64,000 bases of DNA from Conexibacter sp. CPCC 205762 (lineage in GTDB: Bacteria > Actinomycetota > Thermoleophilia > Solirubrobacterales > Solirubrobacteraceae). Under the pieces are notes generated by a model that made no database searches, was not told the origin of the DNA, and worked only from the letters and a program-made list of their open reading frames with translations. The position numbers were made by a program, and so were the translations under genes. Positions 4,849-33,832 of this stretch are shown here, in pieces (the stretch's first letter is position 1; each line of letters opens with the position of its first letter). Location of the stretch: contig NZ_JAUTDN010000001.1 of assembly GCF_030646155.1 (NCBI RefSeq), positions 124,001-188,000 on the forward strand, given 5' to 3'.

Positions 4849-5094
4849 TTACTTGCTCAGCATCGTGCTGATGCCAAAGACGATCGCGCCGATGCAGACG
4901 GCCAGCCCGATCAGCGCGACGGCGCCGTAGCCGGCCATCGCGGCCGGCCGCGACTGCTGCTGCGCCTCGCCGGCGCGCACCGCGCCGAGCAGCACGAGCG
5001 AGAAGGCGATGCTGATGCCGGTGCCGGCCAGCAGCCCGACCAGGACGACCTCCAGCAGCTGGCCCCAGTCGACGATCTCCGCGAACGGCAGCAT
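4849..5094 (-). CDS. Small membrane protein at the end of the pit operon
   Basis: An 81-residue protein with two hydrophobic segments (LLEVVLVGLLAGTGISIAFSLVLLGAV and YGAVALIGLAVCIGAIVFGI) separated by a short charged loop (RAGEAQQQSRPAAMA). Its ATG overlaps the stop of the PiT permease by one base (TGATG), so the two are translationally coupled. I do not recognise the family with certainty. The constant position beside the phosphate permease suggests an accessory subunit or assembly factor. Too short for a transporter by itself. Confidence 0.8.
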   Translation of the reverse strand: MLPFAEIVDWGQLLEVVLVGLLAGTGISIAFSLVLLGAVRAGEAQQQSRPAAMAGYGAVALIGLAVCIGAIVFGISTMLSK

Positions 5095-6206
5095 CAGCTC
5101 GACTCGGTCGCGGTCGTCGTGATCGAGCCGCCCTGCTGCAGCCGCCGCGCGAATATGAAGACGACCAGCGCGACGCCCGCCAGGGCGACGATCACCGGGC
5201 CGGCCGCGCCGTCGCCGAACAGGTGCGTGATCGCGTAGACGAGGCCGCCGACGAACGCCGACGCCGGCAGCGTCAGCACCCAGGCGATCATGATGTTGTA
5301 CGCGACGCCCCAGCGCACGGCCGAGAGCCGCTTGGCGGCGCCGGCGCCCATGATCGCGCCGGAGATCGTGTGCGTCGTCGAGAGCGGGTAGCCGAAGTGG
5401 GTCGCAGCGAGGATCGCGGCAGAGCCGGCGCCCTGCGCGGCGAAGCCCTGCGCCGGATCCATCTTGATGATCCGGCTGCCCATCGTCTTGATGATTCTCC
5501 AGCCGCCGAGGTAGGTGCCGAGCGCGATCGCGGTCGCGGCCGAGACGACGACCCAGGAGGGCACCGAGGCGTCCTGATGGAGGTGGCCGCTGGAGATCAG
5601 CGCGAGCGTGATGATGCCCATCGTCTTCTGCGCGTCGTTGGTGCCGTGCGCGAGCGCCAGCAGGCCGCCGGAGAAGATCTGGCCGACGCGGAAGCCGCGG
5701 CTGACCGGGCCTGGCGCCAGCCGCCCGACGATCCGGTAGCAGCAGAGGATCGCCAGCCCCGCGGCCGAGAACGCCAGCAGCGGCGCGATCAGCGCGGGCA
5801 CGAGCACCTTCGCGATGATCCCGTCGCCGTTGATCGCGCTCGTGCCGACGGCGACGAACATCGCGCCGACGACGCCGCCGATCAGCGCATGCGAGCTGCT
5901 CGACGGCAGCCCGAAGTACCACGTCACGAGGTTCCAGACGATCGCCCCGACCAGGCCGGCGAAGACGATCGTCGTCGTCACCTGGCCCTGGTCGACGATG
6001 TTGTTGGCGATCGTCGAGGCGACCTCCAGCGACAGGAAGGCGCCGACGAAGTTCAGCACCGCCGCCAGCGCGACCGCGACGCGCGGGTTCAGCGCCCGCG
6101 TCGAGATCGAGGTGGCGACGACGTTGGCGGTGTCGTGGAAGCCGTTGGTGAAGTCGAACGCGAGCGCGGTCGCGACGACGATGAAGAGGATGATGTCCTG
6201 ATCCAT
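5094..6206 (-). CDS. pit: PiT-family inorganic phosphate transporter
   Basis: A 370-residue low-affinity phosphate:cation symporter. The two inverted PiT signature copies are visible: DFTNGFHDTANVVATSIS near residue 20 and ALAHGTNDAQKTMGIITLAL around residue 180, each with the G-F/T-x-D-x-A/N core that lines the phosphate site. About ten hydrophobic helices; the length is typical of the short bacterial/archaeal PiT type. It follows the DUF47 gene by 16 bp and is coupled to a small membrane protein downstream. The operon carries PHO-box-like repeats in front (6851-6883), so control by extracellular phosphate is likely. Confidence 0.95.
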   Translation of the reverse strand: MDQDIILFIVVATALAFDFTNGFHDTANVVATSISTRALNPRVAVALAAVLNFVGAFLSLEVASTIANNIVDQGQVTTTIVFAGLVGAIVWNLVTWYFGLPSSSSHALIGGVVGAMFVAVGTSAINGDGIIAKVLVPALIAPLLAFSAAGLAILCCYRIVGRLAPGPVSRGFRVGQIFSGGLLALAHGTNDAQKTMGIITLALISSGHLHQDASVPSWVVVSAATAIALGTYLGGWRIIKTMGSRIIKMDPAQGFAAQGAGSAAILAATHFGYPLSTTHTISGAIMGAGAAKRLSAVRWGVAYNIMIAWVLTLPASAFVGGLVYAITHLFGDGAAGPVIVALAGVALVVFIFARRLQQGGSITTTATESS

Positions 6207-6222: not shown

Positions 6223-6849
6223 TCAGGAGTTCTTGATGACGATGCCCTCGAGCACGTTGGCGACGTGCTCGGTGGCGTCGATCGCGTCCTCCAGCCGCTC
6301 GAACAGGTCCTTCCAGCGGATCACGACCATCGGGTCGATGCCGGTGTCGAACAGCGAGGCGATCGCCTCGCGCACGACCCGGTCGCCCTCGTTCTCGAGC
6401 CGGTTGACCTCGACGGTGTAGTGCGAGATGTCCTTGAAGTCGCGCATCCGCGGGATCGCCTCGACGATCTGGCGCGTCGACTGGAAGAGGATGTGGGCCA
6501 GCCGCTGCGCCTGCTCCATCGGCGCCTCGATCTTGTAGAGCCCGAGGTAGTCGGCGACTTCTTCGGTGAAGTCGACGATGTCGTCGATTCTCGACGCCAG
6601 CTCGAGGATGTCCTCGCGGTCGATCGGCGTCACGAAGGTGTTGTTGAGCCGCTGGATCACGTCGTGCGTGATGCGGTCGCCCTCCTGCTCGCAGATCAGG
6701 ATGTCGCGGGCGAGGTTCTTCGTGTCGGGGAAGCCCCGCAGCATCTGGTCGAGCAGGTCGGCCGCCTGGTGCGCATTGCGGCCCGCCTCCTCGAACAGGT
6801 CGAAGAACTCGCGATCACGGGGGGAGAAGATCTGGGAGAGGCGCGCCAT
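6223..6849 (-). CDS. DUF47/PhoU-like phosphate transport regulator
   Basis: A 208-residue all-helical cytosolic protein of the DUF47 (PhoU-related) family, usually encoded beside PiT permeases and thought to gate them or bind metal-phosphate clusters. Visible are acidic helix patterns such as LICEQEGDRITHDVIQRLNN and EVNRLENEGDRVVREAIASLF, the E-x-x-x-D metal-binding repeats of PhoU-like proteins. I chose ATG 6849 (MARLSQIFSPRDREFF), which matches the usual family N-terminus; an in-frame TTG at 6885 lies further upstream but would place coding sequence over the direct-repeat operator. First gene of the operon. Confidence 0.93.
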   Translation of the reverse strand: MARLSQIFSPRDREFFDLFEEAGRNAHQAADLLDQMLRGFPDTKNLARDILICEQEGDRITHDVIQRLNNTFVTPIDREDILELASRIDDIVDFTEEVADYLGLYKIEAPMEQAQRLAHILFQSTRQIVEAIPRMRDFKDISHYTVEVNRLENEGDRVVREAIASLFDTGIDPMVVIRWKDLFERLEDAIDATEHVANVLEGIVIKNS

Positions 6850-6850
6850 G

Positions 6851-6883
6851 TCTTTGTGAACGATCCGTGTACGGAATGTGAAC
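6851..6883 (-). promoter_or_regulatory. PHO-box-like triple 11-bp direct repeat
   Basis: Read on the minus strand the bases just upstream of the DUF47 start form three contiguous 11-nt units, GTTCACATTCC, GTACACGGATC and GTTCACAAAGA. Units one and three share GTTCACA; the middle one keeps GTaCACg. Contiguous 11-nt direct repeats with a GTTCAC core are the established form of the actinobacterial PhoP box (PhoR-PhoP phosphate-starvation system). The array ends one base before the ATG, so a bound regulator would cover the promoter of a leaderless or short-leader mRNA. No phoPR genes are in the window. Confidence 0.65.
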
Positions 6884-6912
6884 AACGAACGCGCGCCAGT
6901 GTAGAGACTGAG

Positions 6913-6942
6913 CCGGCAGGGCGCCCCTGGGCGCCCTGCCGG
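6913..6942 (-). terminator. Perfect 14-bp GC hairpin after panB
   Basis: The arms ccggcagggcgccc and gggcgccctgccgg pair perfectly around a 2-nt loop, starting 13 bp after the panB stop on the minus strand. There is no T-tract, which is common for actinobacterial hairpin terminators. It separates the pantothenate operon from the phosphate operon. Confidence 0.7.
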
Positions 6943-33731: not shown

Positions 33732-33802
33732 TGCGGGATCGTCTAATGGCAAGACACTCGGCTCTGGACCGAGTAATCGGGGTTCGAATCCCTGTCCCGC
33801 AG
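33732..33802 (+). tRNA. tRNA-Gln (anticodon CTG)
   Basis: A full cloverleaf: acceptor TGCGGGA/TCCCGCA, D-arm GTCTAATGGCAAGAC, anticodon arm CTCGG-CTCTGGA-CCGAG with anticodon CTG (reads CAG, glutamine), and T-arm GGGGTTCGAATCCCT. The discriminator is G at 33802 and CCA is not encoded. 71 nt. A terminator follows within 5 bp. Confidence 0.96.
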
Positions 33803-33806
33803 TAGT

Positions 33807-33832
33807 GAAAGCCCCGTGAATGCGGGGCTTTC
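33807..33832 (+). terminator. Intrinsic terminator after tRNA-Gln
   Basis: Perfect 10-bp stem gaaagccccg/cggggctttc with loop tgaatg, then gccgtttt. It shares the GAAAGCCC...GGGCTTTC style of the terminator at 33556 and is likely usable in both directions. Confidence 0.85.

What the first reader, a model, noticed from the sequence alone, without database searches (positions are those of the whole stretch)
6851..6883. Triple 11-bp PHO-box-like repeat abutting the start of the DUF47-pit operon
Minus strand: GTTCACATTCC-GTACACGGATC-GTTCACAAAGA, three in-phase 11-mers with the GTTCAC core of actinobacterial PhoP boxes, in front of phosphate-transport genes. The array ends one base from the ATG, so PhoP would cover the whole core promoter. 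This predicts repression of the low-affinity system when phosphate is scarce. I see the repeats; the regulator identity is inferred.
Basis: partly seen in the sequence, partly recalled or inferred. Interest (0 to 1): 0.7.

Follow-up and report, generated by a model that had tools for sequence, protein, structure and literature searches.

The report
Phosphate-starvation operator before phosphate importer genes
Just before a low-affinity phosphate importer operon in a Conexibacter bacterium lie three copies of the DNA box that this bacterial group also carries in front of its high-affinity phosphate genes; here they sit just after the likely transcription start, so they probably switch the importer off when phosphate is scarce, as already known in Sinorhizobium but not described for actinobacteria in the papers read.

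Summary
In detail: three in-register 11-mers at 6883-6851 (-), ending one base before the ATG of a DUF47-pit operon. They are not chance. A matrix trained only on pstS promoters of other genera ranks this site first of 127,936 window positions (23.1 bits; next 5.4). Triple arrays (at most one mismatch) occur at only 13 places in seven Conexibacter genomes (0 in the reversed control), four of them before this gene; a fifth genome has a weaker copy. The same box stands before pstS and the phoU operon in this genome and across the order.

The mechanism needs one correction. The array does not cover the core promoter. A conserved TACACT (-10) lies upstream of it in all five, and in three the ribosome site lies behind or at its end, so the array is in the first transcribed bases: an operator or roadblock. 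In seven other loci of the order the -10 instead overlaps or follows the array. Repression in phosphate starvation is therefore the best reading (about 0.7). The regulator is inferred: an orphan response regulator linked to pst/phoU is likelier than a Streptomyces-like PhoP. S. meliloti orfA-pit is a close precedent; Streptomyces pap-pitH1 has no PHO box.

The parts
6873..6883 (-). PHO unit 1, GTTCACATTCC
6862..6872 (-). PHO unit 2, GTACACGGATC (weakest unit)
6851..6861 (-). PHO unit 3, GTTCACAAAGA, one base before the ATG
6898..6903 (-). Predicted -10 element TACACT, within TCTACACT 6905-6898; transcription start expected near 6891
   Evidence: TCTA[CG]ACT in 7 of 7 Conexibacter genomes, 10-15 nt before the first TTCAC in the 5 with the array; no -35 match by consensus scan
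6915..6940 (-). Perfect 11-bp G+C-rich hairpin (loop CAGG) between panB and the promoter; possible terminator of panB without a T run
   Evidence: read from the sequence; not called by the terminator scan
6223..6849 (-). DUF47 / PhoU_div (Pit accessory protein, pap), 208 aa
   Evidence: PF01865; start MARLSQIF conserved in relatives
5094..6206 (-). pit, low-affinity phosphate transporter, 370 aa
   Evidence: PF01384
6956..7840 (-). panB, upstream neighbour on the same strand
   Evidence: PF02548

Best explanation
The array is a genuine PHO box of the Solirubrobacterales type (tandem TTCACA-N5 units). An OmpR/PhoB-family response regulator, activated when phosphate is scarce, binds the three units head to tail. 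The promoter's -10 (TACACT) lies just upstream, so the bound protein sits on the first transcribed bases (about +9 to +41 here, about +4 to +36 in relatives). It blocks promoter clearance or elongation and lowers DUF47-pit expression while pst is induced from PHO arrays in front of its own promoter. Shown: the array, its match to the pst/phoU boxes, its conservation, its order relative to the conserved -10 and, in three relatives, to the ribosome site. Inferred: binding, the identity of the regulator (most likely the orphan response regulator encoded with phoU/pst; alternatives are the RegX3-like regulator with its kinase, or the receiver-less DNA-binding protein beside pstS), and the direction of control.
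For: Independent matrix ranks the site first in the window. Arrays of the same box before pstS and the phoU operon of this genome and before pst genes of relatives. Conserved in 5 of 7 genomes of the genus while spacers and flanks differ, and rare genome-wide. -10 upstream of the array in 5 of 5; ribosome site at or behind the array in L040, L041, L045. No -10-like TANNNT behind the array in these five. Regulator candidates present. Precedent: S. meliloti orfA-pit repressed in starvation, PHO box just upstream of the translation start (PMC3131613; PMC8829014).
Against: No start-site, binding or expression data. Two of seven Conexibacter genomes lack the array (L043, L044). In other genera the -10 overlaps or follows the array, so the sign may differ there. 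In Streptomyces the PhoP-controlled pit gene (pitH2) is activated, not repressed, and pap-pitH1 has no PHO box (PMC7866108). No -35 is recognisable. The five Conexibacter cases are one clade, not five independent ones.
Confidence: 0.68

Rival explanations
1. The array is a PHO box but activates: an unrecognised promoter at or behind the array uses it in place of a -35, and DUF47-pit is induced in starvation like Streptomyces pitH2.
For: In Paraconexibacter, Solirubrobacter and others the -10 overlaps or follows the array; S. coelicolor pitH2 is PhoP-activated.
Against: No TANNNT behind the array in any of the five Conexibacter promoters, whereas TACACT in front of it is kept in all. In L045 the third unit runs into the ribosome site and in the window it abuts the ATG, leaving no room for a downstream promoter.
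Confidence: 0.15
2. The array is read by another OmpR-type or SARP regulator with a similar box (for example an MtrA-like or AfsR-like protein), and phosphate is not the signal.
For: Streptomyces AfsR binds PHO boxes and OmpR-type factors share overlapping sites (PMC6988585). The genome has 15 full-length OmpR-type regulators.
Against: The matrix was learnt from pstS promoters alone, and strong matches lie before pstS, phoU and pst-linked regulator genes.
Confidence: 0.12
3. The repeats are coding sequence: translation starts at the TTG at 6885 and the 33 bases encode an N-terminal extension (MFTFRTRIVHKD).
For: The frame is open through the array; 33 is a multiple of three.
Against: In L042 the array is in another frame relative to the gene, and in L040/L041 it lies about 80 nt before an ATG with its own AGGAGG. 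Matrix score and genome-wide rarity.
Confidence: 0.03
4. The array is a chance repeat or a relic without function.
For: Two of seven genomes of the genus lack it and most other genera have none; the middle unit is imperfect.
Against: First of 127,936 positions with an independent matrix, 0.01 expected, conserved cores in five genomes with differing spacers.
Confidence: 0.02

Closest known systems
Sinorhizobium meliloti orfA-pit (pit operon repressed in phosphate starvation)
   Same: Same gene pair (Pit accessory protein plus Pit); PHO box just upstream of the translation start, unlike most PhoB targets; reciprocal logic to pst (PMC3131613, PMC8829014).
   Different: Different phylum, box sequence and regulator; repression is measured there and only inferred here.
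Streptomyces PHO boxes bound by PhoP (GTTCACC direct repeat units of 11 nt)
   Same: 11-nt tandem units, GTTCAC core, several units per promoter, present at pst and phoU (PMC7866108, PMC6988585).
   Different: Consensus here is TTCACA-N5; binding by a PhoP orthologue not tested; the pst/phoU-linked regulator here is an orphan without an adjacent kinase gene.
Streptomyces pap-pitH1
   Same: Same gene pair (Pit accessory protein plus Pit).
   Different: No PHO box and no phosphate control reported there (PMC7866108).
Streptomyces pitH2
   Same: A pit gene with several PHO units in its promoter.
   Different: PhoP-activated in starvation, no accessory gene in front (PMC7866108); here the array lies behind the -10.

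Membership tests
PHO box (tandem 11-nt direct repeat units) | At least two in-phase 11-nt direct repeats with a conserved core | tested here: met
   three units in phase, GTTCAC/GTACAC/GTTCAC
PHO box (tandem 11-nt direct repeat units) | Same box at pst and phoU genes of the same lineage | tested here: met
PHO box (tandem 11-nt direct repeat units) | Bound by the phosphorylated Pho response regulator | not testable with these tools
   candidate regulators found; no binding data
Streptomyces-type PhoP box | Core GTTCACC in the seven conserved positions | tested here: inconclusive
   six of seven positions in units 1 and 3 (GTTCACA); the lineage consensus has A, not C, at the seventh
   a RegX3-like regulator followed by a histidine kinase exists, but the pst/phoU-linked regulator has no kinase gene beside it
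Pho-repressed pap-pit operon (S. meliloti orfA-pit type) | DUF47-type accessory gene followed by pit | tested here: met
Pho-repressed pap-pit operon (S. meliloti orfA-pit type) | PHO box just upstream of the translation start, not upstream of the promoter | tested here: met
   array ends one base before the ATG and lies behind a conserved -10
Pho-repressed pap-pit operon (S. meliloti orfA-pit type) | Expression falls in phosphate starvation, dependent on the Pho regulator | not testable with these tools
   no expression data at hand

The most novel reading that the evidence does not exclude
Within one order the same PHO array has changed side: at the -10 or upstream of it in other genera (an activating or occluding position), but inside the transcribed leader in Conexibacter, so the sign of phosphate control of the same operon may have been reversed by moving the box or the start site. 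The box would be read by a pst-linked orphan response regulator and/or a receiver-less DNA-binding protein whose own gene carries the box.
Probability: 0.25. Interest if true: 0.55.

Novelty: new member of a known kind. Interest (0 to 1): 0.4.

Why it matters
[quoted passage not shown] It supplies a PHO-box matrix for Solirubrobacterales. It also offers a natural series of promoters in which the same box stands on either side of the -10 of the same gene, a direct way to test how box position sets activation or repression.

Tried and rejected
Rfam around the leader: only one match below the gathering score, on the other strand inside DUF47, so no riboswitch. Consensus sigma-70 and terminator scans: nothing; the -10 was inferred by comparison. 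Coding origin of the repeats: rejected, because the frame is not kept between relatives. PhoB family model TIGR02154: no regulator over the curated cut-off, so it could not name PhoP; comparison with solved structures gave a RegX3-like regulator. Literature on a Pho regulon in Thermoleophilia: none of the 12 papers listed held the class name. The original Bardin 1998 paper is not held; its result is cited through PMC3131613. Several of the looser GTTCAC pair matches fall inside coding sequence (for example L004) and were not followed.

Full report
What is there. On the minus strand, 6883-6851 reads GTTCACATTCC GTACACGGATC GTTCACAAAGA, followed by C and the ATG (6849) of a 208-aa DUF47 protein and then pit. 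The upstream neighbour is panB. The genome has one other pit gene (C87); no array was found in the 9 kb around it. The host is a Conexibacter (Solirubrobacterales): the closest named match is C. arvalis at 95% protein identity, and seven genomes of the genus are held.

More than chance. The triple motif with up to three mismatches occurs once in the window where 0.01 is expected. For an independent test I took the pstS promoters of relatives. They share tandem units TTCACA-N5, TTCACA-N5, then a GCCACA-like unit and GTAACAG. A matrix made from 24 units of 12 pstS promoters outside Conexibacter ranks the finding first of 127,936 window positions, 23.1 bits against 5.4 for the next. Over seven Conexibacter genomes the triple TTCAC pattern with at most one mismatch has 13 matches, against none for the reversed control. 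Four of the 13 are in front of this gene (own genome, G003, G005, G006), and a fifth genome, G004, carries a weaker array there.

It is the box of the local phosphate regulon. In the own genome arrays stand before pstS (TTACCAAGCGG TTCACAATGTT TAAACAG) and before the TIM-barrel-phoU operon (TTCGCGACACG TTCACCGTGCC GTCACGAGTTG GTCACATCGGT AACACACG). One also stands before a secreted protein with SdiA-regulated and phytase-like matches. In other genera arrays precede pstS and the receiver-less regulator genes, and an array in reverse orientation lies just before the pst-linked response regulator gene.

Where the promoter is. In this order the DUF47 gene is usually leaderless: TANNNT lies 4-12 nt before the start codon in 54 of 82 orthologues, against 9 of 410 control offsets. 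In Conexibacter the motif TCTA[CG]ACT is present in 7 of 7 genomes, including the two without the array. In the five with the array, TACACT lies 10-15 nt in front of the first TTCAC and no TANNNT follows the array. In L040, L041 and L045 the ribosome site AGGAGG lies behind or at the end of the array, so the array must be inside the transcript. In the window the start would be near 6891 and the array at about +9 to +41; this is an estimate from -10 spacing, not a measured start. In seven other loci (L099, L102, L110, L135, L139, L145, L158) the -10 instead overlaps or follows the 3' end of the array. On the DUF47 tree the five array-bearing Conexibacter rows fall in one clade (support 97/76) with the two array-less rows. 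The change of side is therefore probably one event plus a loss, and the counts 5 against 7 are not independent. One distant locus (L149) also has TAGAGT in front of its array.

Which regulator. The genome has 15 full-length OmpR-type regulators. Three proteins are candidates. First, a response regulator (receiver and PF00486) encoded behind phoU. It has a strong match (E 1e-81 or better) in 39 of the 41 genomes searched, in most of them (about 29 by my count of coordinates) within about 6 kb of the pstS match, and no kinase gene lies beside it in the loci inspected. Second, a RegX3-like regulator followed by a histidine kinase. Third, a receiver-less PF00486 protein encoded beside pstS. I favour the first because of linkage. 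This is inference.

How it most likely works. In phosphate scarcity the regulator occupies the three units and blocks transcription of DUF47-pit while it activates pst. The sign is inferred from geometry and from S. meliloti, where orfA-pit is repressed in starvation and its PHO box lies just upstream of the translation start, unlike most PhoB targets (PMC3131613; pit down-regulated also in PMC8829014). Streptomyces differs: pap-pitH1 has no PHO box, and pitH2 is PhoP-activated (PMC7866108).

Verdict. Observation confirmed, interpretation partly supported. It is a new member of a known kind. The change of box position between genera and the receiver-less regulator beside pstS are the parts that a specialist would want to follow.

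Noticed in passing
L078:10301-10705 (own genome C48); L237:3714-4073; L241:3315-3674; L238:10086-10442: A receiver-less OmpR/PhoB-type DNA-binding protein (PF00486 only, about 120-134 aa) is encoded divergently from pstS or directly upstream of it. In L237, L238 and L241 its own promoter carries a PHO array and the pstS array overlaps its 3' end. It could be a feed-forward booster or a competitor at PHO boxes.
   Followed up: partly
L025:1396-2247 (own genome C41:25777-26628) and orthologues L204-L233: Orphan response regulator at the 3' end of phoU or pst-phoU operons, conserved across Solirubrobacterales, with no adjacent kinase gene in the loci inspected; likely Pho regulator of the order.
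   Followed up: partly
82 DUF47 orthologue promoters (L039-L045, L099-L173): Leaderless start architecture: TANNNT 4-12 nt before the start codon in 54 of 82, against 9 of 410 control offsets.
   Followed up: yes
L237:2953-3606, L241:2567-3208, L238:11231-11908: A second DUF47 paralogue lies next to pst, divergent from it, in other genera; Conexibacter genomes have only one DUF47 match each.
   Followed up: partly
own genome C27:9042-9068, C39:58630-58662, C75:142896-142912: Further PHO-like arrays before a putative lipoprotein, before a secreted SdiA-regulated/phytase-like lamin-tail protein, and (reverse orientation) before a secreted protein without a Pfam match.
   Followed up: partly
window 33788-33820 (-): Second-best array-like site of the window (5.4 bits, TTCACGGGGCT TTCACTACTGC GGGACAGGGAT); probably chance.
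   Followed up: no
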